This document shows positions 30,053 through 51,541 of a DNA stretch of 64,000 nucleotides, piece after piece; the first letter of the stretch is position 1; each line of letters opens with the position of its first letter. A program made the position numbers and the translations under genes. A model generated the notes under the pieces. That model was not told where the DNA came from. It saw nothing but the letters and a program-made list of their open reading frames with translations, and searched no databases. The DNA comes from Rhodovulum tesquicola (GTDB lineage: Bacteria; Pseudomonadota; Alphaproteobacteria; Rhodobacterales; Rhodobacteraceae). Location of the stretch: the NCBI RefSeq assembly GCF_024128855.1, contig NZ_JAMYDV010000001.1, positions 352,972 to 416,971 of the forward strand, in the 5' to 3' direction.

Positions 30053-30136
30053 GACGGCGGCATCCCTGCCGGATGTGCGGCAAAGTTGCGCGGCGTCTTC
30101 GAGTTTTGCTATCCTCCCCGAGGGGAGGACTTTCAG

Positions 30137-30871: not shown

Positions 30872-30880
30872 GCCGGGACA

Positions 30881-32044: not shown

Positions 32045-34275
32045 TCGACCCGAACGCCCCACCCGAGGTGACGATCGAGCGCCAGGCCCGGATCATCGAC
32101 GCGCTGGTCCGGCGTGCCAGCCGCCAGCACGAGGTGGGCGACTCGGCCTATGCGCTGTTCCAGTCGGCCGTGACGCTGCAAGGGCAGGTCTGGGCCAAGA
32201 CCCGCGATCTTGAACGCACCTCGAGCGAACTGGAAATCGCGCGCTTCGACCGCGAGCAGACCCAGCGCCGCCTGACCGAGGCGCTGGACGCGATGGAGGG
32301 CGGGTTCGCGCTGTTCAACGAGGGGCGGCTTCAGGTCTGCAACGATCTGTTCAAGTCGATCCTGCCCGATATCTCGGCGCGCATCCTGCCCGGGCTGACG
32401 GTCGAGGACTATTTCCGCGCGTTGCAGACCAGCCGCCATCTGGCTGATCCCGACAGGGCCTGCCGCGATCTGGCCGAAGCGATCCGCGGGCCTGCGGGCG
32501 GCGCCAGCATGTCCTTCGTTCTGGAATTGCAGGCGGACCGCTGGTTCCAGATCAGCCAGCAGCGCACCCGATCCGGCAACATCATCCTGTTGCAGACCGA
32601 GATCACCGATATCGTGCGCAAGAACCGGATGGAAAAGGATCTGCTGATCGACATGCAGGCCCATTACCTGCAGGCGGCCTTCGACCACATGAGCCTTGGC
32701 ATCTGCACCTTCTCGCGCGCGGGCGAGGTGACGATCCGCAACGGGCGTTTCCGCGAACTCCTGGGCGTGCCCTACACGCTGGTCCGCGACGGCACCGAGT
32801 TCACGACGATCCTGCGCCATATCCGCGACAACCGGTTGGTGGCCGAGGCGGACATCGCCGATATCGACCACTGGCCGACCGAGTTGCGTCACGAAGGGCG
32901 GCTGCGCAAGCGGCTGCATCATGCCGGTGGCCGGGTGCTGGATCTGCATGTGCACCTGTTGCCGGACCGTGGGTTCCTTGTCGATATTGCCGATGTGACG
33001 CTGGAATCGCGGGCAACGGAGCTTCTTGAAAAGCGGGTGCGCGAGCGGACCCACGAACTGACCGAGGCGAATCGCCGCCTGCGCGAGCAGCACGAGGAAC
33101 AAAGGCGCGTCGAGGAGGAATTGCGGCTGGCCAAGGAAGAGGTCGAGGCCGCGATGTCGTCCAAGACCCGGTTCCTGGCCGCGGCCAGCCATGACCTTCT
33201 GCAACCCGTCAACGCCGCCAAGCTGCTGATCTCGACCCTGGCCGAGATGGCAGAGGGCACCGACATGGCCCGGCTGACCGATCGGCTTGCGGGGTCCTTC
33301 GCCTCGATGGAATCGCTTCTGCATGCACTGCTGGATATTTCACGCCTGGAAAGCACCGGCTCGGCGTTGACGCCGACGGAATTCTGCCTGGGGACCGTGA
33401 TGCGCAGCGTGGTCGAGGACCAGGCGATGGTCGCGGCGCAAAAGGGGCTACGGCTCGACATGGAGCCCTGTTCTGCCTGGGTGCGCAGCGACCGGGAATA
33501 CCTGACGCGGTCGCTGCGCAACCTCGTGGTCAATGCAATCCAGTATACCGAGCGGGGCCGCGTGCTGGTGGGGTGTCGGCGGCGCGGCGACAGGGTGGTG
33601 CTACAGGTCTGGGATACCGGCATCGGCATCCTGCCCGCCGACCACGCCCGCATCTTCGAGGAATTCGCCCGCGCCGATAATGTTCCCCCCGGCTCCGGCA
33701 TGGGTCTGGGGCTGTCGATCGTGGAACGCACCTGTCGCCATCTGGGGCACCAGCTGTCGGTTCACTCGGAACCGGGGCGGGGTTCGGTCTTTTCGATCGA
33801 GATCGGGACCGTGCTCCCAAGGGACGATTGCCCCGGCGCGACCGGACCGGACCTGTCGAATGGCGAGGCGGACCTGAACCTTATCGTGCTGATTGTCGAG
33901 AATGATCCCGAGGTCCTGTTTGCCACCACGCAGAAGCTGGAAAGCTGGGGGGCGAGCGTGCTGGCCGCAGGCTCGACCGTCGAGGCGGTGCGGCTGGTGG
34001 ACGAGATCGGGATGGCACCGGACGTGGTCCTGGCCGATTATCAACTGGATGGCGACGACACTGGGATCGCCGCGATCAAGGCCTTGAGGGCGGCGACGGG
34101 TAGCCACATCCCCGCGATCATGATCACCGCCGATCAGGGCGACGAGGTCCTGCGCGCTGGGCTGACAGAGGATTTCACGGTCCTGAGAAAGCCGGTGCAA
34201 CTCTCGCGACTGCGGCCGCTGATCGACTGGAAGACCCGGGCGCCCGCGCCGCTGTCCGACGAAAGTATCGCGTGA
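32041..34275 (+). CDS. Hybrid sensor histidine kinase (NahK/FlhS-like)
   Basis: 744 residues from the ATG at 32041 (ATGA overlap with the FIST gene). No membrane segment, so cytoplasmic. Order: N-terminal coiled coil (about 20-80), two PAS-like regions (about 80-200 and 210-320; EALDAMEGGFALFNEGRLQV, AAFDHMSLGICTFSRAGEV), coiled coil (about 330-370), HisKA with His384 in AAASHDLLQPVNA, ATPase with NLVVNAIQYT, DTGIGI and GMGLGLSIV, then a C-terminal receiver with Asp666 in LADYQLDG. It should receive its signal from the FIST partner and phosphorylate the LuxR regulator. Confidence 0.92.
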   Translation: MIDPNAPPEVTIERQARIIDALVRRASRQHEVGDSAYALFQSAVTLQGQVWAKTRDLERTSSELEIARFDREQTQRRLTEALDAMEGGFALFNEGRLQVCNDLFKSILPDISARILPGLTVEDYFRALQTSRHLADPDRACRDLAEAIRGPAGGASMSFVLELQADRWFQISQQRTRSGNIILLQTEITDIVRKNRMEKDLLIDMQAHYLQAAFDHMSLGICTFSRAGEVTIRNGRFRELLGVPYTLVRDGTEFTTILRHIRDNRLVAEADIADIDHWPTELRHEGRLRKRLHHAGGRVLDLHVHLLPDRGFLVDIADVTLESRATELLEKRVRERTHELTEANRRLREQHEEQRRVEEELRLAKEEVEAAMSSKTRFLAAASHDLLQPVNAAKLLISTLAEMAEGTDMARLTDRLAGSFASMESLLHALLDISRLESTGSALTPTEFCLGTVMRSVVEDQAMVAAQKGLRLDMEPCSAWVRSDREYLTRSLRNLVVNAIQYTERGRVLVGCRRRGDRVVLQVWDTGIGILPADHARIFEEFARADNVPPGSGMGLGLSIVERTCRHLGHQLSVHSEPGRGSVFSIEIGTVLPRDDCPGATGPDLSNGEADLNLIVLIVENDPEVLFATTQKLESWGASVLAAGSTVEAVRLVDEIGMAPDVVLADYQLDGDDTGIAAIKALRAATGSHIPAIMITADQGDEVLRAGLTEDFTVLRKPVQLSRLRPLIDWKTRAPAPLSDESIA

Positions 34276-34319
34276 CACCGGCTGCGGGCGGGCTAGGCTC
34301 GGCGAAAGGGAGAGGACAT

Positions 34320-34997
34320 ATGCGAAAGACAATTGCGGGCCTTGCTGCGGCCGCCCTCGTGCTGGGCGGCACGGCCTCGGCCGACACCGAGGGCACCGAG
34401 ACCTATGACATGCTGTTTCGAAGCGGCACGCTGGACGACGTGCCACGCTCGGCAATGCTGGTCTATGCGCGCGAGGTCGCCAATCGGGCGAACCCCGAGG
34501 CCGCGGCCGCCGCGACCGGGGAGGTGGAGTTGCGCTTCGCCGCGGACGATCCGACGCTGGCCGCGCTGCGCTTCACCCATGGCGACAGCTTCAGCGCAAT
34601 CGGATCCTTCCCCGCCGAGGTCGGCAATCCGGTCATCATGTATTTCATGGAGACGGTCGTGCGCGACATGGCCGAGACCGCGGGCGGCAGCCCGTTCTAC
34701 ATCCGCAACCGGATGAAGGAAGCATTGCTGCGTCCGGCCAGTGTCGAGGCGGTCGAGGTGGAGTTCGGCGCGGACGAGGTGCAGGCGCAGGCCTTGACGC
34801 TGCACCCTTTCAAGGACGATCCGAACCGTGCGCGGATGCAGGGCTTTGCCGATCTGGAGGTCACGGTCACCATGTCGGACGAGGTGCCGGGATGGTATCA
34901 TGCGTTGAGCGCGCGTGTGCCGGATCTGGAGGGCGGCGCGCCGATCTATGTTTCAACGCTGAAGCTGAAAGCGCCGGGCGGGGAGGCGGAACCATGA
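34320..34997 (+). CDS. Secreted protein of unknown function, methylotrophy island
   Basis: 225 residues from the ATG at 34320 with GGGAGAGGA upstream. A signal peptide (KTIAGLAAAALVLGGTASAD) is clear. The mature part has no motif I recognise; VGNPVIMYFMETVVRDMAE, FYIRNRMKEALLR and LTLHPFKDDPNRARMQGF are its most distinctive stretches, and no cysteine is present in the mature region. It is coupled to the next secreted gene (ATGA overlap), so the two products probably act together in the periplasm. Confidence 0.8.
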   Translation: MRKTIAGLAAAALVLGGTASADTEGTETYDMLFRSGTLDDVPRSAMLVYAREVANRANPEAAAAATGEVELRFAADDPTLAALRFTHGDSFSAIGSFPAEVGNPVIMYFMETVVRDMAETAGGSPFYIRNRMKEALLRPASVEAVEVEFGADEVQAQALTLHPFKDDPNRARMQGFADLEVTVTMSDEVPGWYHALSARVPDLEGGAPIYVSTLKLKAPGGEAEP

Positions 34998-35344
34998 GGA
35001 TGACAGCCCTTGCCATGGTGTCAGCGTGCCTGACCGTGCCGGCAGCAGCGCAGGATGTGGCGGCGCGGTGGAACGATTACCCCACGGCGGCCAGGGCCGA
35101 TTACGTCTTTGCCTGCATGGCCACCAACGGGCAGGGGCGCGACGTGCTGGAGAAATGCGCCTGCTCGATCGACGTGATCGCCTCTATCCTGTCCTACGAA
35201 CGATATGTCGAGGCCGAGACGGTGCTGTCGCTGCGGCAGATACCAGGGGAACGCGCATCGGTCTTCCGCGCTTCGGCCATGGCGAACGAACTGGTTGCCG
35301 ATCTACGGCGGGCCCAGGCGGAGGCGGAGATCGTCTGCTTCTGA
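34994..35344 (+). CDS. Small secreted cysteine-containing protein, unknown
   Basis: 116 residues from the ATG at 34994. A signal peptide ends near VPAAAQD. Mature cysteines in FACMATNG, EKCACSIDV and the terminal IVCF could form two disulfides. The pattern (W..YP....DYVFACM..N......L..CACSID.I) recalls small periplasmic proteins beside PQQ dehydrogenases, but I do not know a function. Co-translated with the preceding gene. Confidence 0.8.
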   Translation: MRMTALAMVSACLTVPAAAQDVAARWNDYPTAARADYVFACMATNGQGRDVLEKCACSIDVIASILSYERYVEAETVLSLRQIPGERASVFRASAMANELVADLRRAQAEAEIVCF

Positions 35345-35502: not shown

Positions 35503-36309
35503 TCAGGACTGGCCGGCCTTGGGCAGGTCGTGTTCGAAGACATTGCCTTCGGTATCGCGGGCGATCACCCGCAGGGATGGGGCGCCGTTATCGGTGTAGG
35601 AGAACCGGAAGACCGGGTTCTCGCTGATCGAGATGCCACCCTCCATGGTGAAGAGCATCTCGTCGCCCTGCCAGAGTTCGAGCCGGTCGATGAAATGCGC
35701 GAGGATGAAAAGCTGGGTGAGCTGGTCCCGCTGCAGGCCCGAATAATTGGGGTGGCGGATCATGATCTGCGCTTCGCGACGTGCGGTCGACATCGTGGGC
35801 GCCTGGGAGAAATGCTTCAGTCGCATCTCGCCCATCCCGGCCAGCGCTTCTTCGGGGTTGCGCGTGGCCGGGGCCGAGCAACCGCCCGAGGCCTTGACAT
35901 AGCGGCCGGTCATCAGGTGGCCCTGGTCGGTATCGGCGATCACGCGGATGTTGGAATACTGGTTCACGCGCACCCGGATCTCGAGATCGAGCGGCGCCAT
36001 GGCGGGGCCGAAGGTGAAGCTTGCGGCCAGCGGTGCGGGGTTGTCGTCGATCACCACGGTCGCCCTCCGGATCGTCAGGCCCGGATCGGTCTGGCGGATC
36101 GTGACCGGCACCGTGGCGGCATCGTTGGCGCGGTAGGGGGCCTGGACCTCGAAGCGGCCTGCGGCGTCGGCGATGTCGATCTCGCCCACGAGGTCGGTCC
36201 TGAGTTCGTTCCAGATGTGGCTTTCGGCCAGCGGGCTGGCACGGTTATCCTCGGCCAGTGCCGGGCCGAAGGCCAGCGCGGCGATGGCGGCGGCGATGAG
36301 GGGTTTCAT
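35503..36309 (-). CDS. Fused SoxYZ-like carrier, quinoprotein-associated (copy 1)
   Basis: 268 residues from the ATG at 36309, with a signal peptide (AIAALAFGPALAED). The N-terminal half resembles SoxY (EIDIADAAGRFEVQAPYRAND, TIRRATVVIDDNPAPLAA); the C-terminal half resembles SoxZ (IRHPNYSGLQRDQL, GDEMLFTMEGGISISENPVF). A single mature cysteine lies at the junction (SGGCSAPA), where SoxY has its swinging-arm cysteine. Family known as quinoprotein dehydrogenase-associated SoxYZ-like carrier. What it carries is not established. A second copy is at 44275-45084. Confidence 0.87.
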   Translation of the reverse strand: MKPLIAAAIAALAFGPALAEDNRASPLAESHIWNELRTDLVGEIDIADAAGRFEVQAPYRANDAATVPVTIRQTDPGLTIRRATVVIDDNPAPLAASFTFGPAMAPLDLEIRVRVNQYSNIRVIADTDQGHLMTGRYVKASGGCSAPATRNPEEALAGMGEMRLKHFSQAPTMSTARREAQIMIRHPNYSGLQRDQLTQLFILAHFIDRLELWQGDEMLFTMEGGISISENPVFRFSYTDNGAPSLRVIARDTEGNVFEHDLPKAGQS

Positions 36310-36443
36310 GGGGCGCGTCCTCCCTGATGCGCGGTCCTGACAGGGGAGTATGCCACGAAAACGGGCTGCGCGGTATTCCCCATAGGTCGGTATGGAATGC
36401 GGGGGGCGGCGGGCGCAGGCTTGGAGGGCGGAGCCGGGGAGGG

Positions 36444-37487
36444 GTGCCTTTGTTCGAAGTGATCGTGACGCTCTGTCTGGCCGCGGCACCCGGGACCTGC
36501 CGCGATGTGCTGTTGCCGGGCCATGAGGCGGCGACCGAGGCGGCCTGCCTTGCGTCCCTGGACCGGGCACCTGTCGCGGCGCTGCCCGAGGGGGTGATCG
36601 CAGCCGGGCCGGTCTGTGTGCCGGTGGGCGAGGCGCTGGGCCTTGACGAGGTTGCGCCGGGGATTCTGGTGCATCGGGGCGCGATTGCAGAGGCCGATGG
36701 CGAGAATGGTGGCGACATGGCGAATCTGGGGGTCGTGATCGGCGCCCGATCGGTCGCGGTGATCGACACCGGCAGCGCGCGCTGGATGGGCGAGGCAATC
36801 TGGCGGGCGGTGCGGGCGCGCACCGATCTGCCGGTCAGCCATGTGATCCTGACCCACATGCATCCCGATCATGTCTTCGGCGCCACGGTGCTGGCCGAAG
36901 CGGGGGCAGAGGTCGTGGGGCATGAGGGGCTGGCGCGCGCCTTGGCCGACCGGCAGCAGAACTATCTGGAAAGCCTCGCGGCGCGGATCGGGGCCGGGCC
37001 GTTCATCGGCACGGCTGTCGCGCCGGTGGATGTCGAGGTCGCGGATGCGGTCGAGATCGACCTTGGCGGGCGGGTTCTGGAGGTGCGCGCCTGGCCTACC
37101 GCCCATACCGGGACCGACCTGACCGTGCTGGACCGGGACAGCGGCGTGCTTTTCGTGGGTGATCTGGTCTTCGACAAGCATCTGCCGACCCTCGATGGAT
37201 CGCTGCGTGGCTGGCAGGTCGTGCTGGCCGAACTTGTGACGATCCCGGCGCGTGCCGTCGTGCCTGGCCATGGCGGGCCGGTATTGTCATGGCCGGATGG
37301 GGTGCAGGACACCGCGCGCTATCTGGACTTACTGGCACGAGACACGCGCGCCGCGATCGACAGGGGCGAGCGGCTGAGCGGTGCGGTTGGCGACATCGCC
37401 GCCGGGGAACGCGACCGTTGGGAGTTGTTCGACGAGCATAATGCGCGCAACGCGACCGTTGCCTTCACCGAACTGGAATGGGAATGA
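36444..37487 (+). CDS. Quinoprotein relay system zinc metallohydrolase
   Basis: 347 residues from GTG at 36444; TTG at 36450 has a better spaced GGAGGGG and is an alternative start. The N-terminus (VIVTLCLAAAPGTCRDVLLPG) is hydrophobic with cysteines. The metallo-beta-lactamase core has THMHPDHVFG (zinc ligands), FVGDLVFDKHLPTLDG and VVPGHGGP. This corresponds to the SoxH-like zinc hydrolase family found with XoxF/PQQ genes. By analogy with SoxH and glyoxalase II it may cleave a thioester or thiol adduct, but no substrate is proven. Divergent from the SoxYZ-like gene. Confidence 0.87.
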   Translation: MPLFEVIVTLCLAAAPGTCRDVLLPGHEAATEAACLASLDRAPVAALPEGVIAAGPVCVPVGEALGLDEVAPGILVHRGAIAEADGENGGDMANLGVVIGARSVAVIDTGSARWMGEAIWRAVRARTDLPVSHVILTHMHPDHVFGATVLAEAGAEVVGHEGLARALADRQQNYLESLAARIGAGPFIGTAVAPVDVEVADAVEIDLGGRVLEVRAWPTAHTGTDLTVLDRDSGVLFVGDLVFDKHLPTLDGSLRGWQVVLAELVTIPARAVVPGHGGPVLSWPDGVQDTARYLDLLARDTRAAIDRGERLSGAVGDIAAGERDRWELFDEHNARNATVAFTELEWE

Positions 37488-37505
37488 GCGCCGCTTTTAT
37501 CCCGT

Positions 37506-38117
37506 TCACTCCGCGACGGCGCGGGCCAGCATCTGCGCGATGGCGAAAAGTCGCTGTTCCAGGATAACCGGCGTCTCGCAGACATAGGTCAGCGACTGCG
37601 CGCGATCCGTATAGATTCGCTCGTCCCATGCGAGCTGCTCCTCGGCCGCATCGATCCGGTCGTGATCCAGCGGCTCTGCGTCCAGCAGCGTGTCGACCTC
37701 GATCCGGGTGGCCTCGATCCTTTCGGACAGCGCGATCTGCGAGAGCGAATAGTCTTCGATGCCCTTCATTACGGTCTGCCGCTGGCGCGACATGATTTCG
37801 AAGGCCGACATGAAGACATGGCCCAGAAGCGCGCTGTCATTGCCGTAGGCTCCGGTGAAGGCGGTCACCGTCGGTTCCAGATCCTCGACCGGGATGCGGC
37901 GCAGCACCAACCTGCCGACAAGCTCCTTCACCGCGGCCTCGGTCTCGGCGTCGAAACTTCGTGGCTCGATCGGATGGGGCCACATGATCCCGGGGGACAA
38001 TTGTGCCACCTTGCGCTGGATGCAGGGCCAAGTGGGGTCCGAGAAATCGGCGGCCGGGGCAACGGTTGCGGCGCCTAGCGCCAAGAGCGCAGCCACGGTG
38101 AGAGCGCGTGCGGTCAT
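37506..38117 (-). CDS. Secreted protein of unknown function
   Basis: 203 residues with a signal peptide (VAALLALGAATVAPAADF). The mature protein is mostly helical, with cysteines in WPCIQRKV and TYVCETPV that may form a disulfide between its two ends. SPGIMWPHPI and FEIMSRQRQTVMKGIEDYS are distinctive. It contains no domain I recognise. It lies between the zinc hydrolase and the formaldehyde dehydrogenase genes, on the opposite strand, and is divergent from the latter over 168 bp. Confidence 0.78.
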   Translation of the reverse strand: MTARALTVAALLALGAATVAPAADFSDPTWPCIQRKVAQLSPGIMWPHPIEPRSFDAETEAAVKELVGRLVLRRIPVEDLEPTVTAFTGAYGNDSALLGHVFMSAFEIMSRQRQTVMKGIEDYSLSQIALSERIEATRIEVDTLLDAEPLDHDRIDAAEEQLAWDERIYTDRAQSLTYVCETPVILEQRLFAIAQMLARAVAE

Positions 38118-38285
38118 GGATTCTCCTCCCTCGGCGCAAGTCTAACGCGGATCGGCTCGAAGTCCACGCAGGGACCGTTCCGGCCAATACCCACCAAGGT
38201 CGCAATTGCCGGTCACTGTGTGCCTTCGCATACTTGCTTCACTTAAGAAAAATAAGAACACTTGGGTTGGGAGGAGATAGCGAAC

Positions 38286-39398
<1,113 letters not shown>

Positions 39399-39407
39399 GC
39401 CGCGCCG

Positions 39408-40244
39408 ATGGAGGTTGTTTCCCAGAATCGCTGCTTCGACGGGGTGCAGATGGTCTGCACCCACCCGTCGCAGGTCTGCGGCGTGGACATGACCTTCGGC
39501 GTCTACCTGCCGCCCCAGGCCGAGGACGGGCCGGTTCCGGTTCTGTGGTATCTCTCCGGGCTGACCTGCACGCATGAGAATGCGATGGTGAAGGGCGGGT
39601 TCCAGAGGCACGCGGCCGAGCATGGGATTGCCGTGATCTTTCCCGACACGTCGCCCCGCGGCGATGGGGTGGCCGATGACGACGCCTATGATCTGGGCCA
39701 GGGGGCAGGCTTCTACGTCAACGCCACGCGCGCGCCCTGGACGGCGCATTTCCGGATGTATGATTATGTGCTCGAGGAATTGCGCGGGCTGGTGCTGGAC
39801 AACCTGCCGATTGCCGATGTCCATGGGGTGACCGGACATTCGATGGGCGGGCATGGGGCGCTGACCCTGGCGCTGCGAAACCCCGACCGGTTCGACTCCC
39901 TGTCAGCCTTTGCGCCGATCGCCAATCCCACCCGGTCGGACTGGGGGCGAAAGCAGTTGAGCGCCTATCTCGGCGACGACGAATCGGCATGGGCATGTTA
40001 TGATTCAAGCCTTCTGCTGGAGGAGCATGGCTGGAAGGATGCGATCCTGATCGACCAGGGGGCCGGAGACCAGTTCCTCGACCTGCTGCGCCCCGAGGCT
40101 TTGGCCTCAGTCTTGGCGCGTCGGCGTCAGGCCGGGCTGGTCCGCATGCAGCCCGGTTATGACCACAGTTATTACTTCGTCGCTAGCTTTGCAGGGGACC
40201 ATGTCGGCTGGCATGCCGAACGCCTGCACCGGCGGCGCAACTGA
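39408..40244 (+). CDS. fghA: S-formylglutathione hydrolase
   Basis: 278 residues. LWYLSGLTCTHENAMVKGGF, FPDTSPRGDGV, the nucleophile elbow GVTGHSMGGHGALTLALR and PGYDHSYYFVASFAGDH (catalytic His) match the esterase-D family. It hydrolyses S-formylglutathione to formate and glutathione, completing formaldehyde detoxification with FlhA, in the same operon. Confidence 0.95.
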   Translation: MEVVSQNRCFDGVQMVCTHPSQVCGVDMTFGVYLPPQAEDGPVPVLWYLSGLTCTHENAMVKGGFQRHAAEHGIAVIFPDTSPRGDGVADDDAYDLGQGAGFYVNATRAPWTAHFRMYDYVLEELRGLVLDNLPIADVHGVTGHSMGGHGALTLALRNPDRFDSLSAFAPIANPTRSDWGRKQLSAYLGDDESAWACYDSSLLLEEHGWKDAILIDQGAGDQFLDLLRPEALASVLARRRQAGLVRMQPGYDHSYYFVASFAGDHVGWHAERLHRRRN

Positions 40245-40496
40245 CAGGTTCGGGAGCGGGGGCATGCGTGCAAAGGGTCGGGACACCTTCGCCACGGCAG
40301 GCCGGTTGCCCGCGCCGCGACAGATACCACGATCACGGCAATAGGGGAGGACTGACGCGACTTTACCGAAACGTTGCACCGGAGGGAGGACCAATGTCCC
40401 GGTGCTGCGCCGGTTCCGGCCAGGCGAAGGGTGGTCGACTGCCACCCCCTGCTGCCGCGGAGCCTTTCAAAAGACCAGAACCCAAGGGAGTGAAAA
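40245..40496 (+). promoter_or_regulatory. xoxF promoter/leader region
   Basis: 252 bp with no supported gene. It must hold the xoxF promoter, as expected for a highly expressed dehydrogenase. A small hairpin GGGTGG (40429-40434) / CCACCC (40442-40447) lies in the presumed leader, and AAGGGAG gives a good ribosome site before the ATG at 40497. A purine-rich GGAGGGAGGA at 40381-40390 precedes an ATG that opens into xoxF in another frame (discussed under rejected items). No -35/-10 pair is convincing. Confidence 0.45.
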
Positions 40497-42296
40497 ATGA
40501 AAAAACTGTTTGCTTTCACGTCTGTCGCGGCGCTGTGTGCCGGGTCGGCGGCGCTGGCCAACGACGAGTTGCTGGAGCTGATGAACGACCCGACTCAATG
40601 GGTCATCCAGACGGGCAACTACGCCAACCATCGCTATTCGGGGCTCGACCAGATCAACCGTGAGAACGTCGGCAACCTGCAGGTGGCCTGGACCTTCTCG
40701 ACCGGCGTTCTGCGGGGCCACGAGGGCAGCCCGCTGGTGATCGGCGACACAATGTATGTGCACACGCCGTTCCCGAATATCGTCTACGCGCTGGATCTGA
40801 ACGATCACGGCCGGATCAAGTGGAAATACGAGCCCCAGCAGGACAGCAGCGTCATACCGGTGATGTGCTGCGACACCGTGAACCGCGGTGTGGCCTATGC
40901 CAACAACACGATCTTCCTGCATCAGGCCGATACCACCATCGTGGCGCTGAACGCCGAGACGGGCGAAGTCAAGTGGACCGCGGTGAATGGCGATCCCTCG
41001 ATTGGCGAGACGAACACCGCGACCGTGATGCCGGTCAAGGACAAGATCATCGTCGGCATCTCGGGTGGCGAGTTCGGAGTTCAGGGCCATATCACCGCCT
41101 ATGACATGGAAACCGGCGAACTTGCCTGGCGCGGCTATTCGGTCGGCCCCGACGACCAGATCCTGTTCGACGAGAACACCATGTCGCTGGGCAAGCCGGT
41201 TCCGGCCAACTCCTCGATCGACAGCTGGGAAGGCGACCAGTGGAAGATCGGCGGCGGCACGACCTGGGGCTGGTACTCCTACGATCCCGATCTGAACCTC
41301 GTCTATTACGGCACCGGCAACCCCTCGACCTGGAACCCGTCCCAGCGTCCGGGCGACAACAAGTGGTCGATGACGATCATCGCGCGCGATGCGGATACCG
41401 GCATGGCCAAGTGGGTCTACCAGAAGACCCCGCATGACGAGTGGGACTATGACGGCGTGAACGAGAACATCCTCGTCGACAAGGAAATCGACGGCGAGAT
41501 GCGCAAGCTGCTGGTCACCTTCGACCGCAACGGCTTTGCCTACACGCTGGATCGCGCGACCGGCGAACTTCTGGTGGCCGAGAAATACGACCCGGCCGTG
41601 AACTGGGCGACCCATGTCGACATGGACCCTGCGTCCGAGACCTATGGCCGCCCGATGGTGGTGGCGGATTACTCGACCGCGCAGAACGGCGAGGATGTCA
41701 ACACCACCGGCATCTGCCCCGCCGCGCTGGGCACGAAGGACCAGCAGCCGGCCTCCTACTCGCCGCAGACGGGTCTGTTCTATGTGCCGACGAACCATGT
41801 CTGCATGGATTACGAACCCTTCCGCGTCAGCTACACCGCCGGCCAGCCCTATGTGGGCGCCACGCTGTCGATGTACCCGGCGCCGGACAGCCATGGCGGG
41901 ATGGGCAACTTCATCGCCTGGGACGCGCTGGCGGGCGAGATCAAGTGGTCGATCCCCGAGCAGTTCTCGGTCTGGTCGGGCGCGCTTGCCACCGCGGGTG
42001 ACGTCGTGTTCTACGGCACGCTCGAGGGTTTCCTCAAGGCCGTGGACGCCGAGACCGGCGAAGAGCTCTACCGCTTCAAGACCCCGTCGGGCGTCATCGG
42101 GAACGTGATGTCCTACGAGCATGACGGCAAGCAGTATGTCGGCATCCTGTCGGGTGTCGGCGGCTGGGCCGGCATCGGTCTGGCGGCGGGCCTTACCAAC
42201 CCGAATGACGGTCTGGGTGCCGTGGGAGGCTATGCCGCGCTCAGCGACTATACCGCGCTCGGCGGTCAGCTGACCGTGTTCAAGCTGCCGGACTGA
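40497..42296 (+). CDS. xoxF: Lanthanide-type PQQ methanol/alcohol dehydrogenase XoxF
   Basis: 599 residues with a signal peptide ([13 protein letters not shown]). Eight-bladed propeller quinoprotein: vicinal disulfide Cys124-Cys125 (PVMCCDT), metal ligands Glu192 (GGEFGVQG) and Asn275 ([10 protein letters not shown]), catalytic Asp317 and the extra Asp319 in WDYDGVNE. That second Asp marks lanthanide-dependent XoxF; calcium MxaF has Ala there. It oxidises methanol (and possibly other alcohols or formaldehyde) in the periplasm, passing electrons to XoxG. No MxaF is in the window. Confidence 0.96.
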
Positions 42297-42319
42297 TCGG
42301 CGGCGCGAGGGGAGGAGCC

Positions 42320-42349
42320 GGATTGGCACGGGGTGACCCGTGCCAGTCC
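42320..42349 (+). promoter_or_regulatory. xoxF-xoxG intergenic hairpin with GNRA loop
   Basis: A 13-bp stem (GGATTGGCACGGG / CCCGTGCCAGTCC, one T-G pair) capped by GTGA, a GNRA-type tetraloop. It lies 24 bp after the xoxF stop and 21 bp before the xoxG start, with no T-run. It may protect the xoxF message 3-prime end or set the xoxF:xoxG expression ratio. Confidence 0.6.
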
Positions 42350-42370
42350 ACATCGCGACAGGGAGGAAAG

Positions 42371-42901
42371 ATGAAGAGGTTGCGACTGGCGCTGGTTTTC
42401 GGCGCAGTGGCGGGGCTGGCCAGCGCCGGCGGCGCCACCGAGAACAGGGGGCTGCCGGGCAACGGTCCTGCCGCCTACAAGGAGGATGGGCGGTACTTCA
42501 CCGAGGACGGGGTGCCCACCTATTTCATCGCCGAGGACGGCACGGTCGATTGGCTGACCTTTTCAGGCTTCCGCCGCTATCACGCGGAGTGCCATGTCTG
42601 CCACGGGCCTGACGGCATGGGCTCGACCTACGCGCCGCCGCTGAAGGACGCCGTCGAGAGGATGGATTACTACGACTTCGTCTATATCGTGTCGAACGGG
42701 ATCCAGAATGTCGACGTATCGCATCAGAACGTGATGCCCACCTTCGGGCAGAACAAGAACGTGATGTGCTACATCGACGACATCTATGTCTATCTCAAGG
42801 CCCGAGGTGATGGAGCGTTGCAGCGGGGCCGTCCGGCCAAGAGAGAGGACAAGTCGGATGCGGTCGCCTCCTTCGAAGCCGAGTGTATGGCCGGTGGTTG
42901 A
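42371..42901 (+). CDS. xoxG: Cytochrome c of the XoxF system (XoxG)
   Basis: 176 residues from the ATG at 42371 (GGGAGGAAAG upstream). A signal peptide (LVFGAVAGLASAGGA) is followed by one haem site CHVCH (74-78), with a likely Met122 axial ligand in NVMPTFG. Two further cysteines (NVMCYID, EAECMAGG) match the methanol-metabolism-related four-cysteine cytochrome family. It accepts electrons from XoxF. Its 3-prime end overlaps the xoxJ start. Confidence 0.92.
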   Translation: MKRLRLALVFGAVAGLASAGGATENRGLPGNGPAAYKEDGRYFTEDGVPTYFIAEDGTVDWLTFSGFRRYHAECHVCHGPDGMGSTYAPPLKDAVERMDYYDFVYIVSNGIQNVDVSHQNVMPTFGQNKNVMCYIDDIYVYLKARGDGALQRGRPAKREDKSDAVASFEAECMAGG

Positions 42902-43730
42902 AGCGCGTCTGGCTGCAGCGATAGGCACACTCTTTCTGAGCTTTGCGCCGGTTCCGGGGCAGGCGCAAACCTCGGATCTGGTATCGAAGACCGCATTCCG
43001 GGTTTGCGCCGATCCTGCCAACTACCCGATGTCGGACGATCAGGGGCGCGGGTTCGAGAACCGGCTTGCGGAACTTTTCGCAGAGAAGCTTGGGCTGCCG
43101 GTCGAATACACCTGGTACCCGATGGCGACAGGTTTCGTGCGGAATACCCTGCGTGCCAACAAGTGCGATGTCATCATCGGCTTTGCCCAGGGGCATGAGC
43201 TGGTGCTGAACACCAACCACTATTTCACCTCGACCTATGTGCTGATCGTGGATGCGGATGGTCCGCTCGCGAATGTCGAGGCCCTGTCCGACCCGGCCTT
43301 GCAGGGGCGCGCGCTGGGCGTCGTCGCGGGCACGCCGCCTGCCTCGCACATGGCGCGGTACGGTCTGATGGGCAAGGCGCTGGCCTATGACCTGATGGTG
43401 GATCGCCGCTACGAGGCGCCGGGCCCCGACATGCTGACCGCGCTGAGAGCCGGAGAGATCGACGGCGCGGTCCTGTGGGGGCCGATCGGCGGACCGCTGG
43501 TCAAGAACGACTTCCCCGAACTCAAGGTCATCCCGCTGGTCCACGAGGAATTGCCGCCGCGGCTGTTCTATCGCATCACCATGGGGGTGCGGCTGAACGA
43601 GAAGGTCTGGCAGCGCCAGTTGAACTCGTTGATCCGCCGCCATCAGGACGAGATCAACGCGATCCTGCACGAGGCGGGCGTTCCGATCGTGGACGATTAT
43701 GGCAAGGTGGTGCGGGACCTGGCGCAATGA
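42858..43730 (+). CDS. xoxJ: XoxJ/MxaJ-type periplasmic binding protein
   Basis: 290 residues from the ATG at 42858 (44 bp inside xoxG, GAGAGAGGA upstream); GTG at 42894 is the alternative and gives a more compact signal peptide. FRVCADPANYPMSDDQGRGF, LPVEYTWYPMATGFVRNTL, KCDVIIGFAQGHELV and EIDGAVLWGPIGG match the quinoprotein-associated solute-binding family (XoxJ/MxaJ). XoxJ is thought to help XoxF folding or activation; no transport partner is known. It is coupled to the CXXCW gene by ATGA. Confidence 0.9.
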   Translation: MRSPPSKPSVWPVVEARLAAAIGTLFLSFAPVPGQAQTSDLVSKTAFRVCADPANYPMSDDQGRGFENRLAELFAEKLGLPVEYTWYPMATGFVRNTLRANKCDVIIGFAQGHELVLNTNHYFTSTYVLIVDADGPLANVEALSDPALQGRALGVVAGTPPASHMARYGLMGKALAYDLMVDRRYEAPGPDMLTALRAGEIDGAVLWGPIGGPLVKNDFPELKVIPLVHEELPPRLFYRITMGVRLNEKVWQRQLNSLIRRHQDEINAILHEAGVPIVDDYGKVVRDLAQ

Positions 43731-44281
43731 TCCGCGCTGCGGCCCTTGCACTCGTGCTGGGGCTTGGGGCGGGGCAGGGGCTGGCCGAGGTGCCGGAACC
43801 CCCGGACTACCGCATGGACGACTATCGCGGTCCGGTGCCCGCAACGCTGGCGGGCGCCACCGTGATTGGCCCCGAACAGGCGCATGCGCTCTGGCAAGCG
43901 GGCGGGGCGGTGTTCGTCGATGTGATGCCGCGCGCACCGAAGCCGCCGAACCTGCCCGAAGGCACGATCTGGCGCGATCCTCCGCGCCTGTCGATTCCCG
44001 GCGCGATCTGGCTGCCGAATGTGGGCTATGGCGAGATTGCCGAGGTAACGCACGGCTATTTCCGCGATGGCCTTGACCGCGCGACCGGCGGGGACGCGGC
44101 GCGGCCGCTTGTATTCTTCTGCCTCGATGAATGCTGGATGAGCTGGAACGCCGCGAAACGCGCGCTCGAATACGGCCATGCGCGCGTCTACTGGTTTCCC
44201 GAAGGCACCGATGGATGGACGTTCCTTGCCCTGCCGCTGGAGCGGGCAGCGCCAGAGCCCGGCGAGCCGGGCACTCAGTAA
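43727..44281 (+). CDS. PQQ-associated CXXCW-motif rhodanese-like protein
   Basis: 184 residues from the ATG at 43727. A signal peptide (LALVLGLGAGQGLAEV) is followed by a rhodanese-like domain with the family motif VFFCLDECWMSWNAAKRALE, where CLDECW carries the conserved cysteines. The loop is not a classic CxxxxR rhodanese loop, so a redox or sulfur-relay role is as likely as sulfurtransfer. Found with PQQ alcohol catabolism. It ends 7 bp inside the convergent second SoxYZ-like gene. Confidence 0.87.
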   Translation: MIRAAALALVLGLGAGQGLAEVPEPPDYRMDDYRGPVPATLAGATVIGPEQAHALWQAGGAVFVDVMPRAPKPPNLPEGTIWRDPPRLSIPGAIWLPNVGYGEIAEVTHGYFRDGLDRATGGDAARPLVFFCLDECWMSWNAAKRALEYGHARVYWFPEGTDGWTFLALPLERAAPEPGEPGTQ

Positions 44282-45084
44282 CCCGGAAGCTGGCGGCTGG
44301 CGGTGGTGACGGTGCCGCTGGTGTCTTTCATCGTGACCTCGACCAGCCGGGTTGCGCCCGGGGCGGACAGGCCGATGCGGGGGTTCTCGCTCAGCGAGAT
44401 GCTGCCGGTGATCGTGGCATAGGGCTGGCCATCCAGCGCCACCGCGACCGTCTCGACATAGCGTGGCGGGATGAACAGCAGCGAGACCTGGTCCTTTTGC
44501 AGGCCGGAATGGCTGGGGTGACGGATGTCGATGTCGATCCGGCCCTCTCTTGTCGTCAGCGCGGCCAGTCGCGCGGTTGGAGGGGCGGCATGGGCCAATG
44601 GCGCCATCTCGATCCGCATCTGGCCCAGATCGGCAAGTGCTGCCACCGGATCGCTGCCGGGCGGCGCGGCGCAGGCGCCCTGTCCGCTGGTCTTGACATG
44701 GGTTTCGGCCACGAAAAGCCCGCCATCGGTCGTCTCGGCGACGACGTGCAGCGCCGTCGCGCCATTGAAGCGCAGCGTCAGGTCCAGAAACAGCGCGGGC
44801 AGCGGACGCGCCAGCTCGACCACGGCAGAGACCGGCATCGGGTTCTCGTCGAGAACCACGGTGACCCTGTCGATCAGCCGCCCTTCGGGCCCCTCGACAT
44901 GCACCCCGATCGGCGTCCTTGCATCGTCCTCGGTGCGATAGGGGCTGGTGATGGCGATATGCGGACCGGCGGGGATCAACTCATGGTCCGGAAACAGCAT
45001 TGGCCGCAACTCGTCCCATGCCGTCTGGGCAAGGGCCGGACCGGCTGCCAGCGACAGGGCGAGGGCAAGGAAAAGGCGGCGCAT
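44275..45084 (-). CDS. Fused SoxYZ-like carrier, quinoprotein-associated (copy 2)
   Basis: 269 residues from the ATG at 45084, with a signal peptide (LALALSLAAGPALAQ). Same architecture as the copy at 35503-36309: SoxY-like part (ITSPYRTEDDARTPI, RVTVVLDENPMPVSAV), a lone mature cysteine in QGACAAPP at the junction, and a SoxZ-like part (IRHPSHSGLQKDQVSLLFI, GSISLSENPRIGL). The two copies are clearly paralogous but well diverged. It heads toward the CXXCW gene tail-to-tail and follows the beta-propeller gene by 4 bp. Confidence 0.86.
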   Translation of the reverse strand: MRRLFLALALSLAAGPALAQTAWDELRPMLFPDHELIPAGPHIAITSPYRTEDDARTPIGVHVEGPEGRLIDRVTVVLDENPMPVSAVVELARPLPALFLDLTLRFNGATALHVVAETTDGGLFVAETHVKTSGQGACAAPPGSDPVAALADLGQMRIEMAPLAHAAPPTARLAALTTREGRIDIDIRHPSHSGLQKDQVSLLFIPPRYVETVAVALDGQPYATITGSISLSENPRIGLSAPGATRLVEVTMKDTSGTVTTASRQLPGY

Positions 45085-45088
45085 GGGC

Positions 45089-46063
45089 TCAGTCTCCTCG
45101 TTTTGCGATGAAGCGGCCAAAGGCGCGCGGGCCGTCGCCGGTGGCGATCTCGGCGGTCACGGTCAGGGTTTCGGCGTCGATCAGGCTGACGCTGTTGGAA
45201 AACCAGTTGGCAACCACGATGGTCGCGCCATTGGCGGTGGCGTCGATCCCCTCGGGGTATTCGCCGACCGCGATCTCGGCCAGCGCTGCGAGGGTGGCAA
45301 GGTCGATCACGCTGACCGTATCCGCGTGCTGGTTGGTGACGAAGGCCCGGCCACGGGCAAAGGCGACGCCATAGGGCTGGTCGCCGTCCGGAACCGTCGC
45401 CAGCACAAGGCGTCGGTCCACATCCACCACGCTCACGTCGTTAGAGCCGACATTGCCGACGAACAACCGCCCGTCCGGCGCAAAGCCCAGCCCGAAGGGC
45501 CGGGTGCCGACCGGGACCGTGCCCATGCGCGCAAGGTTTTCAAGGTCGAAAACCGAAACCTGCCCCGCCTCTTTGTCGGCCGAGGCAAGCCAGCGGCCAT
45601 CGGGGGATACCGCCAGCCCGGCAGGCGCGGCGCCCGTTTCCAGCGTGCCGGTCAGCGCCATTGCGGCGGCATCCACCACCCAGAGCCGCGCATTGTACCA
45701 GTCCGACACGAAGACGCGCCCGCGCAGCGGATCATGGGCGATGCCGATGGGGCCGCCGTCCAGCGCGACCTGCCCGGTCTGGTGCCCCGAGGCATCGAAG
45801 CGGCGCAGCGACTTGGTGTCGGGCGAGACGGCGAAGAAGCCGTCTGCCGCAACCGCAATCCCGGCAGGCTGGCCGGGCAGCGGGACCTGCGCCAGCTCGG
45901 TTCCGGCAGCCAGATCGAGGATCGAGACCGAACCGCCGTTCTGGTTCGTCACATAGGCAATATCGCCTGCCGCCGGAGGCGCGGCGAGCGTCCAGCCCAA
46001 GGCCAGCGCCAGAATGTCAGGGCGCGCCAAAGCGGTCGACCAGGGCGGACAGGCCCGCCTCAT
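45089..46063 (-). CDS. PQQ-associated YVTN beta-propeller protein
   Basis: 324 residues, start overlapping the SRPBCC gene by 47 bp; a TTG at 46030 would shorten the overlap. An export signal (DILALALGWTLAAPPAAGD) is followed by seven YVTN-type repeats (DIAYVTNQNGGSVSILDLAA, GRVFVSDWYNARLWVVDAAA, GRLFVGNVGSNDVSVVDVDR, RAFVTNQHADTVSVIDLATL, TIVVANWFSNSVSLIDAETL). This family is linked to PQQ-dependent alcohol catabolism. A periplasmic scaffold or binding role is likely; no catalytic residues are seen. Confidence 0.87.
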   Translation of the reverse strand: MRRACPPWSTALARPDILALALGWTLAAPPAAGDIAYVTNQNGGSVSILDLAAGTELAQVPLPGQPAGIAVAADGFFAVSPDTKSLRRFDASGHQTGQVALDGGPIGIAHDPLRGRVFVSDWYNARLWVVDAAAMALTGTLETGAAPAGLAVSPDGRWLASADKEAGQVSVFDLENLARMGTVPVGTRPFGLGFAPDGRLFVGNVGSNDVSVVDVDRRLVLATVPDGDQPYGVAFARGRAFVTNQHADTVSVIDLATLAALAEIAVGEYPEGIDATANGATIVVANWFSNSVSLIDAETLTVTAEIATGDGPRAFGRFIAKRGD

Positions 46064-46574
46064 AGACCGCTGTCACGGCCTTGATCGCGGCCTCGTCGTT
46101 CAGTTCGGGGGGCGGATCGTTGTTGGGATAGCCGCGATAGAAGGCGCCGCGCCATTCCACGACCGACCCGCCGCCATCGCGCGGCTTGACGGTCAGATGG
46201 GCGGAATAGTTCGTCACCGGCAGCACCTCGACCGCGACCTCGGTGATCCGGTAGGAATAGGTCATCTTCTCGGTATCGAATTTGTAAAGCTGTTCGGAAA
46301 TGGTCGGCCCGTCCGCCGCACCCAGCGTCAGCACCCGCGTCGCATCGACCGCGTTGCCGCCCTCGCCGGTCGTGGCGTGGACAGCCGGGTGCCAGCCCAT
46401 GTCCTGAAAGTCGCCCACGACCGCCCAGACCTCGGCCGGTTCGGCGGCCAGTTCGGTGGTCACGTCGACCTTCTGGCGCGTCGGCCCATGCGCCAGCGCC
46501 AGCGCGGGAACCATCACCGCCACGGCCGTCAGCGCGGCCAGAGAGCCATGGAACTTCACGAAATCCTCCCTCAT
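46017..46574 (-). CDS. Secreted SRPBCC (START-like) protein
   Basis: 185 residues with a signal peptide (LAALTAVAVMVPALALAHG). KVDVTTELAAEPAEVWAVVG and DFQDMGWHPAVHATTGEGG give the SRPBCC/polyketide-cyclase-like fold, which binds hydrophobic ligands. A periplasmic SRPBCC is unusual. It overlaps the DUF3280 gene upstream by 4 bp and the propeller gene downstream, forming one operon with the second SoxYZ-like gene. Ligand unknown. Confidence 0.83.
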   Translation of the reverse strand: MREDFVKFHGSLAALTAVAVMVPALALAHGPTRQKVDVTTELAAEPAEVWAVVGDFQDMGWHPAVHATTGEGGNAVDATRVLTLGAADGPTISEQLYKFDTEKMTYSYRITEVAVEVLPVTNYSAHLTVKPRDGGGSVVEWRGAFYRGYPNNDPPPELNDEAAIKAVTAVYEAGLSALVDRFGAP

Positions 46575-47086: not shown

Positions 47087-47288
47087 CGTCCGAGCTTATC
47101 CCCGCCCGGACAGGTCGCAATGCGCCTTAAGTATCGGTTTCCCATTTGCTCTGCGCTCTGGCACGATCCTCGAAACTCTGCCTGCGCTGGCGGGGAGGCG
47201 GCTGGCGGCGATGCTGTCCGCCGGTCCGGGTGATAAAGGGCGGACAAGAACGACACCGGAAACGCGCGCCGAAACCGGGAGGAAGATC

Positions 47289-48263: not shown

Positions 48264-48272
48264 GCGGCGGCG

Positions 48273-51328: not shown

Positions 51329-51541
51329 ATGATCGAACTTGTCTTCGTCGCCTGCTTTGGACTGGCGCAGAATGAACAACGGGCCTGCGAGGAACGCAGC
51401 CTGATCTATACCGACATCTCACCCATGGCCTGCATGATGGGGGCCCAGCCGGAACTGGCAAAATGGGTCGAGACGCATCCGAACTGGACCGTCGCCAACT
51501 GGAAATGCCGGTATCTGAACACCGCCCAGCGCAAGGCCTGA
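51329..51541 (+). CDS. Small conserved protein, unknown
   Basis: 70 residues from the ATG at 51329 (the frame is open further upstream without homology). LVFVACFGLAQNEQRACEERSL-type N-terminus (hydrophobic, with cysteines), ACMMGAQPELAKWVETHPNW and WKCRYLNTAQ. Four cysteines suggest disulfides and secretion. It resembles small orphan proteins seen in Rhodobacterales; no function is known. The 176 bp upstream contain short self-complementary stretches only. Confidence 0.6.
   Translation: MIELVFVACFGLAQNEQRACEERSLIYTDISPMACMMGAQPELAKWVETHPNWTVANWKCRYLNTAQRKA

What the first reader, a model, noticed from the sequence alone, without database searches (positions are those of the whole stretch)
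35503..45084. Candidate periplasmic sulfur-carrier relay around XoxF
Two diverged fused SoxYZ-like carriers (35503-36309 and 44275-45084) flank xoxF-xoxG-xoxJ. Each keeps a single mature cysteine at the SoxY/SoxZ junction (SGGCSAPA; QGACAAPP). The same island has a CXXCW rhodanese-like protein and a SoxH-like zinc hydrolase. In sulfur oxidation, SoxYZ holds substrates on such a cysteine. A quinoprotein island without other sox genes suggests a carrier acting on C1 or aldehyde thiol adducts or persulfide. The families are known; their chemistry is not.
Basis: partly seen in the sequence, partly recalled or inferred. Interest (0 to 1): 0.78.

Follow-up and report, generated by a model that had tools for sequence, protein, structure and literature searches.

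The report
Cysteine carriers beside lanthanide methanol dehydrogenase
A Rhodovulum-like genome carries two one-cysteine carrier proteins, a zinc hydrolase and a rhodanese-like protein around its methanol dehydrogenase; this set is an already named but untested helper system, and in sampled relatives it follows one type of the enzyme, which makes its role easier to test.

Summary
The two proteins (35503-36309 and 44275-45084, minus strand) are fused SoxY-SoxZ relatives, about 33% identical, flanking xoxFGJ. Each keeps one mature cysteine. All 42 fused carriers found by HMM in 249 Pseudomonadota genomes have it; in 41 it is the only one. The hydrolase and the rhodanese-like protein are real too, but the motif is CX3CW, not CXXCW.

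The families and their tie to quinoproteins are already named (NCBIfam TIGR04557, TIGR04559, TIGR03865) and discussed in print (PMC12997753, PMC11237559). I found no experiment on their chemistry.

New here:
- All 34 genomes with fused carriers have a PQQ alcohol dehydrogenase and a hydrolase-family hit; 31 of 34 have the CX3CW protein.
- In one genome from each of 199 genera of the window's family, the carrier follows XoxF-like enzymes: 25 of 28 carrier genomes against 2 of 32 quinoprotein genomes without it. Both carrier genomes lacking an intact quinoprotein show a decaying PQQ system.
- The adjacent-cysteine pair proposed in print as the link does not discriminate.
- The second carrier is a separate clade.

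Best reading: an accessory cysteine-carrier and hydrolase module serving XoxF, working like Sox. Its cargo, sulfur or C1, is undecided.

The parts
35503..36309 (-). Carrier 1: fused SoxY-SoxZ-like protein, Sec-type signal peptide (by eye), lone Cys144 in VKASGGCSAPA
   Evidence: TIGR04557 275 bits; PF13501 + PF08770; cysteine in 42 of 42 fused carriers of the phylum sample; residues 144-149 of the model have pLDDT under 50, between the two domains
36444..37487 (+). SoxH-like metallo-beta-lactamase-fold hydrolase, divergent from carrier 1; 4-Cys N-terminal segment and no recognisable signal peptide
   Evidence: TIGR04559 371 bits; seven metal ligands and four N-terminal Cys each in at least 95% of 72 aligned rows, start by alignment
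37506..38117 (-). Conserved protein of unknown function (two conserved Cys), part of the island
   Evidence: found in 71 of 80 named loci; weak Metal_resist match below cut-off; conserved Cys
38286..39398 (+). adhI: S-(hydroxymethyl)glutathione dehydrogenase
   Evidence: TIGR02818 602 bits, cut-off 544
39408..40244 (+). fghA-like S-formylglutathione hydrolase (name from reading and position, not scanned)
   Evidence: ORF; neighbour in 45 of 80 loci
40497..42296 (+). XoxF: PQQ methanol dehydrogenase with adjacent CysCys and lanthanide-type Asp-Tyr-Asp
   Evidence: TIGR03075 769 bits; CC and WDYDG columns
42371..42901 (+). XoxG: c-type cytochrome
   Evidence: TIGR03874 244 bits
42903..43730 (+). 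XoxJ: periplasmic binding protein-like
   Evidence: TIGR03871 283 bits
43724..44281 (+). PQQ_CXXCW family protein, rhodanese-like fold, motif CX3CW
   Evidence: TIGR03865 228 bits; motif in 45 of 45 orthologues; model matches rhodanese-fold proteins in PDB
44275..45084 (-). Carrier 2: diverged fused SoxY-SoxZ-like protein, lone Cys138 in SGQGACAAPP (arm two residues longer)
   Evidence: TIGR04557 159 bits; motif Cys in 32 of 32 orthologues; separate clade with 100/100 support
45089..46063 (-). Beta-propeller protein in the run that ends with carrier 2
   Evidence: TIGR02276 repeats; TIGR03866 131 bits, below cut-off 287
46017..46574 (-). SRPBCC-type protein (called MxaD-like here from memory) in the same run
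   Evidence: PF10604 116 bits
46571..47086 (-). DUF3280 protein, first gene of that run
   Evidence: PF11684 172 bits
34314..34997 (+). Unknown protein, conserved neighbour
   Evidence: no Pfam match above cut-off; 70 of 80 loci
34997..35344 (+). Unknown protein with four conserved Cys, conserved neighbour
   Evidence: no Pfam match; 71 of 80 loci; conserved Cys

Best explanation
This is the quinoprotein-associated carrier module (fused SoxYZ-like carrier, SoxH-like zinc hydrolase, CX3CW rhodanese-like protein) of a XoxF island, here with two carriers. It most likely works like a cut-down Sox system that serves XoxF as an accessory and is not part of the methanol-to-formaldehyde route. The lone cysteine on the flexible linker between the SoxY and SoxZ domains picks up a reactive adduct arising at or threatening the quinoprotein, most likely sulfane sulfur or another sulfur species. 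The CX3CW protein exchanges sulfur or thiol equivalents with it, and the two-metal hydrolase releases the adduct and resets the cysteine. Shown here: the anatomy, the conserved cysteine, the intact hydrolase site, the predicted rhodanese-like fold of the CX3CW protein and the tight tie to XoxF. Inferred: the nature of the cargo, the order of steps, and that the purpose is upkeep or protection.
For: Family scores. The cysteine is in 42 of 42 fused carriers found by HMM and is the only one in 41; in carrier 2 orthologues it is in 32 of 32. It lies in a stretch of low model confidence between the domains. The hydrolase is within 1.5 kb of 34 of 42 fused carriers and keeps all seven metal ligands, which suits a hydrolase more than a one-metal persulfide dioxygenase (recalled). 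The CX3CW model matches rhodanese-fold proteins. The quinoprotein tie is 34 of 34, and within the family carrier presence follows XoxF-like enzymes, 25 of 28 against 2 of 32. The set is absent beside xoxFGJ with an 81% identical XoxF in G225, so it is an accessory. All three parts are related to sulfur-handling families, and soxB is commoner in carrier genomes among those with PQQ-ADH (15 of 34 against 5 of 35, P 0.008, not corrected for kinship). A review reports minimal phenotype of these genes in P. putida without lanthanides (PMC12997753, section 15).
Against: 19 of 34 carrier genomes have no soxB, so inorganic sulfur oxidation by Sox is not required, and the soxB excess is concentrated in a few families, 8 of 15 in one. 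On the contigs that hold the 42 carriers the nearest YeeE-type sulfur transporter is 18 kb away. The hydrolase fold also includes thioester-cleaving enzymes (recalled), which suits a C1 cargo as well. In G289 carrier 1 and the hydrolase persist beside adhI-fghA after XoxF is gone, which fits a formaldehyde role or a recent loss. In the window's clade the hydrolase has no recognisable signal peptide.
Confidence: 0.4

Rival explanations
1. Aldehyde or C1 relay: formaldehyde forms a thiohemiacetal on the carrier cysteine, it is oxidised to a thioester, and the zinc hydrolase releases formate, a periplasmic counterpart of the glutathione route.
For: The carriers sit with xoxF, adhI and fghA. The hydrolase has the full two-metal site of thioester-cleaving metallo-beta-lactamase-fold enzymes (function of such enzymes recalled). 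In G289 carrier 1 and hydrolase remain with adhI-fghA without XoxF.
Against: Does not explain the rhodanese-like CX3CW protein found in 31 of 34 carrier genomes. The cysteine is on an internal linker tethered at both ends, so reaching a buried PQQ site is hard (inference). Another carrier subtype (about 28% identical to carrier 1) goes with other quinoproteins, 36% identical to XoxF, in G274 and G356.
Confidence: 0.22
2. Maturation: the trio forms or repairs the disulfide between the adjacent cysteines of the quinoprotein, as proposed in PMC12997753.
For: A two-cysteine rhodanese-like protein and a one-cysteine carrier are suited to thiol exchange. The review notes a thioredoxin-like gene in the M. 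extorquens operon.
Against: The adjacent cysteines are present in 111 of 114 quinoproteins examined, and each genome examined, with or without carriers, had at least one such enzyme (33 of 33, 35 of 35). Many enzymes with the pair therefore occur without the trio. A hydrolase is not obviously needed for this.
Confidence: 0.13
3. Sox-Xox sulfur oxidation: the XoxF-type enzyme itself acts on thiosulfate or tetrathionate, and the carrier, hydrolase and rhodanese-like protein form a branch of dissimilatory sulfur oxidation.
For: XoxF of Advenella kashmirensis is reported to oxidise thiosulfate to tetrathionate, and a thiol dehydrotransferase of that species to join tetrathionate to glutathione (primary work, Pyne et al. 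2018, not seen; passages of PMC6548844, PMC9774590 and PMC10301885). XoxF ranks higher on methanol and on thiosulfate in Starkeya novella (PMC3797975 passage).
Against: 19 of 34 carrier genomes lack soxB. No SoxXA, SoxB or SoxCD among the 20 island proteins scanned. In H. denitrificans a comparable gene group was judged to belong to PQQ-dependent alcohol catabolism (PMC11582611 passage).
Confidence: 0.1

Closest known systems
NCBIfam TIGR04557 quinoprotein dehydrogenase-associated SoxYZ-like carrier, with TIGR04559 and TIGR03865
   Same: Both carriers, the hydrolase and the CX3CW protein score above the curated cut-offs; neighbourhood as the names imply
   Different: Two carriers, the second a deep separate clade with a longer arm (QGAC) ending a DUF3280-SRPBCC-propeller run; motif CX3CW
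P. putida ped cluster genes PP_2666, PP_2677, PP_2678
   Same: Same kinds of three genes, with PedC/ABC genes and a NosP-kinase-regulator set nearby (PMC12997753 table and section 15; window)
   Different: That trio lies with PedE/PedH; the window's lies with XoxF and has two carriers. Orthology gene by gene was not tested
SoxYZ-S2 and SoxYZ-S4 of lucinid symbionts
   Same: Fused carriers beside PQQ-ADH and beside xoxF/fdh, close to soxH (PMC11237559 passages and section 24 part 1)
   Different: Different bacteria; whether S2 and S4 match carriers 1 and 2 was not tested
Canonical SoxYZ of thiosulfate oxidation
   Same: Fold of SoxY and SoxZ; GGC at the arm in carrier 1
   Different: Fused; arm internal, not the C-terminal GGCGG; scores below the true SoxY and SoxZ cut-offs

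Membership tests
TIGR04557 fused SoxYZ-like carrier | Score above 140 bits over the whole model | tested here: met
   275.1 and 158.7 bits
TIGR04557 fused SoxYZ-like carrier | SoxY and SoxZ domains in one chain | tested here: met
   PF13501 then PF08770 in both
TIGR04557 fused SoxYZ-like carrier | Genome also encodes a PQQ alcohol dehydrogenase | tested here: met
   Window XoxF; 34 of 34 and 28 of 30 carrier genomes
True SoxY / SoxZ of thiosulfate oxidation | TIGR04488 over 125 bits, TIGR04490 over 76 bits | tested here: not met
   SoxY model 53.2 and 35.2; SoxZ model 47.7 and 40.0 bits
True SoxY / SoxZ of thiosulfate oxidation | C-terminal GGCGG arm | tested here: not met
   Arm is internal; SGGCSAPA and QGACAAPP
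True SoxY / SoxZ of thiosulfate oxidation | Covalent sulfur substrate on the cysteine | not testable with these tools
   needs mass spectrometry
TIGR04559 quinoprotein relay zinc metallohydrolase 2 | Score above 280 bits | tested here: met
   370.8 bits; TIGR04558 164.7 against cut-off 300
TIGR04559 quinoprotein relay zinc metallohydrolase 2 | Complete two-metal site | tested here: met
   HxHxDH, H, D, H each in at least 95% of 72 aligned rows, window included
TIGR04559 quinoprotein relay zinc metallohydrolase 2 | Exported to the periplasm | tested here: inconclusive
   No recognisable signal peptide in the window's clade, signal-like N-termini by eye in most others shown; no predictor run
TIGR03865 PQQ_CXXCW | Score above 128.05 bits | tested here: met
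   228.5 bits
TIGR03865 PQQ_CXXCW | Literal CXXCW motif of the family name | tested here: not met
   CX3CW in 45 of 45 orthologues
Rhodanese fold | Structural match to solved rhodanese-fold proteins | tested here: met
   18 PDB matches at E up to 0.001, all rhodanese-fold sulfurtransferases or the EanB enzyme; TM by query only 0.41-0.48, by target 0.66 for YgaP; no Pfam hit
Lanthanide-type XoxF | TIGR03075 score and Asp-x-Asp | tested here: met
   769 bits; WDYDG; metal not testable here

The most novel reading that the evidence does not exclude
A carrier-bound quinoprotein pathway: XoxF itself (or its cytochrome) oxidatively loads a substrate onto the cysteine of the SoxYZ-like carriers, as SoxXA does in the Sox system, and the SoxH-like hydrolase unloads it as SoxB does. 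The two carriers would handle different substrates or steps. This would be a Sox-like cycle driven by a lanthanide enzyme, on carbon or sulfur.
Probability: 0.12. Interest if true: 0.85.

Novelty: new member of a known kind. Interest (0 to 1): 0.45.

Why it matters
XoxF enzymes are a main route of methanol oxidation (recalled), yet helper genes that follow them closely have no function shown in the papers I saw. In one genome of each of 199 genera the carrier follows one quinoprotein type, and where it is left without an intact quinoprotein (two genomes) the PQQ system is decaying. This says the function is XoxF-linked. The work also weakens one proposed explanation (the adjacent-cysteine pair) and names natural contrasts: G225 and G328 with XoxF but no carrier, G289 with carrier but no XoxF.

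Tried and rejected
Viral relatives: a scan of viral contigs with carrier 1 found nothing. This does not exclude distant viral copies, which PMC11237559 mentions.

Adjacent cysteines as the reason for the trio: rejected as a discriminator; maturation itself is not excluded.

Lanthanide-type enzyme as the reason: carrier genomes have one more often (31 of 33 against 19 of 35, P 0.0002, uncorrected for kinship), but 19 genomes have it without carriers, and G054 has a carrier with two calcium-type enzymes only. The 31 includes G185, whose only D-x-D protein is atypical (QL in place of CC). The other negative, G139, had one of its three quinoproteins examined. Some lower-scoring quinoproteins were not fetched, and carrier genome G059 was left out (so 33 of 34). 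My first column choice for the Asp motif was wrong and was replaced.

Sulfur transporter link (PmpAB in H. denitrificans, PMC11582611): not general in the 34 genomes searched; distances were measured only on the same contig.

Solved structure of a fused carrier: none found by sequence; the 8 distinct chains that match are SoxY or SoxZ. In the fold search of the carrier model the first 13 matches are SoxY chains; further down antibody chains match, which I take as noise.

The hydrolase's 4-Cys segment looked like a small 4-Cys protein at 51329-51541, but BLASTP gives no alignment; dropped.

Bias to know of: the scan that gave the 80 named loci used two peptide patterns, one of which contains the cysteine motif, so the 81 of 81 is partly by construction. 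The unbiased count is (42 carriers found by HMM), and carrier 2 orthologues were found as neighbours, not by a cysteine pattern.

Counts of 'fused' carriers were made by hand from the listing: at least 140 bits and no stop inside. Adjacent soxY-soxZ pairs were dropped, and fused proteins under 140 bits would be missed. In one search the regex for the 4-Cys segment matched 58 of 72 rows; for 12 rows the anchor motif was not found and two (L129, L133) failed the test. In one search one carrier 2 row had two further cysteines and is kept in the 32. The tree used about a third of the carrier 1 orthologues (28 of 81).
Full report
WHAT IS THERE. The window is G000:C1:352972-416971 of a 3.5 Mb genome. 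Its first carrier and XoxF are 99% identical to those of Rhodovulum steppense, its second carrier 87%, so the organism is a Rhodovulum or close to one. Around the finding lie, in order: flhR-, nosP- and flhS-like regulators; two unknown proteins; carrier 1 on the minus strand; the SoxH-like hydrolase divergent from it; an unknown protein; adhI; fghA; xoxF; xoxG; xoxJ; the CX3CW gene; then, convergent with it, a minus-strand run that reads DUF3280, SRPBCC, beta-propeller, carrier 2 with overlapping or nearly touching ends; then an NMT1-type ABC transporter and the PQQ_ABC_ATP and PedC-like ABC genes (flhS, fghA and one ATPase named by reading).

FAMILIES. Carriers 1 and 2 score 275 and 159 bits on TIGR04557 (cut-off 140), the hydrolase 371 on TIGR04559 (280), the CX3CW protein 228 on TIGR03865 (128), XoxF 769 on TIGR03075 (480). 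The carriers fall well below the cut-offs of true SoxY and SoxZ, though their nearest solved relatives are SoxY and SoxZ. The genome has a separate sox cluster: soxY with the usual GGCGG end (PF13501), soxB (TIGR04486), and soxX, soxZ and soxA by reading of the ORFs. Among the 20 island proteins scanned no other sox gene appears.

THE CYSTEINE. Of the 42 fused carriers found by HMM in the phylum sample, all 42 have a cysteine in a GGC or GAC motif; in 41 it is the only cysteine of the matched region, and one (G194) has a second. Of 81 carrier 1 orthologues (80 named loci plus L034) 81 have exactly one beyond the signal region, in [FY][VI]KA[SA]GGC[SA]A; this count is partly by construction, since one of the two search patterns contains the motif. 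Of 32 carrier 2 orthologues, found as neighbours, 32 have it in GxGAC[AS]APP, and one has two further cysteines. In the model of carrier 1 (mean pLDDT 77) residues 144-149, starting at the cysteine, have pLDDT under 50, between the SoxY and SoxZ sheets. This agrees with a mobile arm, but the arm is held at both ends, unlike the free C-terminal arm of SoxY.

THE PARTNERS. The hydrolase keeps His-x-His-x-Asp-His, His, Asp and His, each in at least 95% of 72 aligned rows. That is the full two-metal set expected of a hydrolase. In the window's clade it starts with MFE or a near variant and a segment with four conserved cysteines, with no signal peptide that I can recognise; elsewhere (Methylosinus L133 and most of the unnamed loci L036-L053) the N-terminus looks like a signal peptide. 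No predictor was run. The CX3CW protein has the motif in 45 of 45 orthologues. Its model (mean pLDDT 86) matches rhodanese-fold proteins in the PDB (18 matches at E up to 0.001, TM by query 0.41-0.48), although Pfam finds nothing.

TWO CARRIERS. In a tree of 92 carriers, carrier 2 and its orthologues (33 rows) form one side of a branch with 100/100 support, apart from carrier 1 (28 rows). Carrier 2 occurs in Rhodobacterales, Rhizobiaceae and Stappiaceae. It lies within 700 bases of the CX3CW gene in 28 of 31 named loci, but in L057 it sits beside carrier 1 together with the propeller and SRPBCC genes, so its closer unit is that run. In the family sample 17 of 30 carrier genomes have two or three carriers.

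CO-OCCURRENCE ACROSS THE PHYLUM. The same 249 Pseudomonadota genomes were searched for each family. I counted 42 truly fused carriers in 34 genomes. All 34 have a PQQ alcohol dehydrogenase, against 35 of the 215 others. All 34 have a hit of the hydrolase family at E up to 1e-30, against 31 of the others; 23 genomes exceed the curated cut-off, all of them carrier genomes. The hydrolase is within 1.5 kb of 34 of 42 carriers. CX3CW is over cut-off in 31 of 249 genomes, all 31 among the 34. A quinoprotein is within 10 kb of 23 and within 30 kb of 31 of 42 carriers. SoxB is in 15 of the 34 and 25 of the 215 others; among genomes with PQQ-ADH it is 15 of 34 with carrier and 5 of 35 without (P 0.008), 8 of the 15 in one family.

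CO-OCCURRENCE IN THE FAMILY. One genome each of 199 genera of the window's family was searched. Fused carriers are in 30; 28 of these have a PQQ-ADH at E up to 1e-140, against 33 of 169 others. CX3CW is over cut-off in 29, all among the 30. I then compared the quinoproteins with the window's XoxF. At 65% identity or more there is one in 25 of 28 carrier genomes and in 2 of 32 others (one further genome with only a fragment, G430, was not counted). The three carrier genomes without one are G274, G356 and G320 (36, 36 and 50% identity). The remaining enzymes are 35-39% identical and occur without carriers in 30 genomes and with them in 11. The two carrier genomes without an intact quinoprotein are telling. 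G289 has the island with xoxFGJ, CX3CW and carrier 2 missing between fghA and the ABC genes, and its pqqE frame has stops inside. G267 (95% complete) has a quinoprotein remnant with stops inside and no pqqE match. Conversely G225 and G328 have a window-like XoxF and no carrier, and G225 has no pqqE match. G225 does have a SoxH-family protein under the cut-off (136 bits) on the contig of its soxB. These counts are not corrected for kinship beyond one genome per genus.

THE ADJACENT-CYSTEINE IDEA. PMC12997753 (section 15 read; passages) says the trio is consistently associated with PQQ-ADHs that have adjacent cysteines and suggests disulfide formation or protection of PQQ. I checked 114 quinoproteins. 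Adjacent cysteines are in 111, and each genome examined, 33 with carriers and 35 without, has such an enzyme. The association is therefore true but does not discriminate.

MECHANISM. Shown: one-cysteine carrier, adjacent hydrolase with a complete site, two-cysteine partner with a predicted rhodanese-like fold, inheritance as a set with XoxF, absence beside XoxF in some genomes. Inferred: the carrier cysteine takes a covalent adduct and the hydrolase frees it. I favour a sulfur species and an upkeep role for XoxF because all three parts are related to sulfur-handling families and the rhodanese-like protein has no evident place in a pure aldehyde relay. The C1 relay remains open, chiefly because of the hydrolase type and the persistence of carrier 1 and hydrolase beside adhI-fghA in G289. 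A third possibility is that XoxF acts on sulfur itself, as reported for Advenella (Pyne et al. 2018, not read; seen through passages of PMC6548844, PMC9774590 and PMC10301885).

WHAT IS KNOWN. NCBIfam had named the families. PMC11237559 (passages and section 24 part 1 of 2) describes fused SoxYZ-S2 and S4 with PQQ-ADH, xoxF and soxH and proposes protection of methanol dehydrogenase from thiosulfate. [quoted passage not shown] PMC6548844 (passages) notes two soxYZ fusions in Methylophaga. In the nine literature searches made and the passages read I saw no experiment on the purified carrier and no count of carriers against quinoprotein type; most listed papers were not opened, and the library lacks most subscription papers.

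VERDICT. The new parts are the genus-level link to XoxF, the decaying exceptions, the failure of the adjacent-cysteine discriminator, the second carrier clade and the odd hydrolase N-terminus.

Noticed in passing
window 36444-36674: In the window's clade the SoxH-like hydrolase begins with a segment holding four conserved cysteines and no recognisable signal peptide, while most relatives shown from elsewhere have signal-like N-termini.
   Followed up: partly
window 34314-35344; L146, L148, L149: Two unknown proteins, the second with four conserved cysteines, neighbour xoxF in many loci; one or both also occur beside XoxF in three loci of genomes without carriers.
   Followed up: partly
window 37506-38117: Conserved unknown protein with two conserved cysteines between hydrolase and adhI, found in 71 of 80 loci; only a sub-threshold Metal_resist match.
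   Followed up: no
window 30086-34275: An ErdR-like regulator and a NosP-like protein (both below the model cut-offs) and a kinase named by reading precede the island, resembling the regulator set of the P. putida ped cluster.
   Followed up: no
L303 (G289:C16:458000-477000): Island with xoxFGJ and the CX3CW gene missing while carrier 1, hydrolase, adhI and fghA remain; the pqqE frame nearby has stops inside.
   Followed up: partly
L147 (G225:C33:1-9000): fghA-xoxFGJ-propeller-SRPBCC with an 81% identical XoxF but no carrier, hydrolase or CX3CW in the locus, and no pqqE match in the genome.
   Followed up: partly
window 47283-49630: NMT1-type ABC transporter (binding protein, permease, ATPase) inside the island, also kept in several relatives; substrate unknown.
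   Followed up: no
window 51329-51541: Small four-cysteine protein downstream of the PedC-like gene without a Pfam match above cut-off.
   Followed up: no
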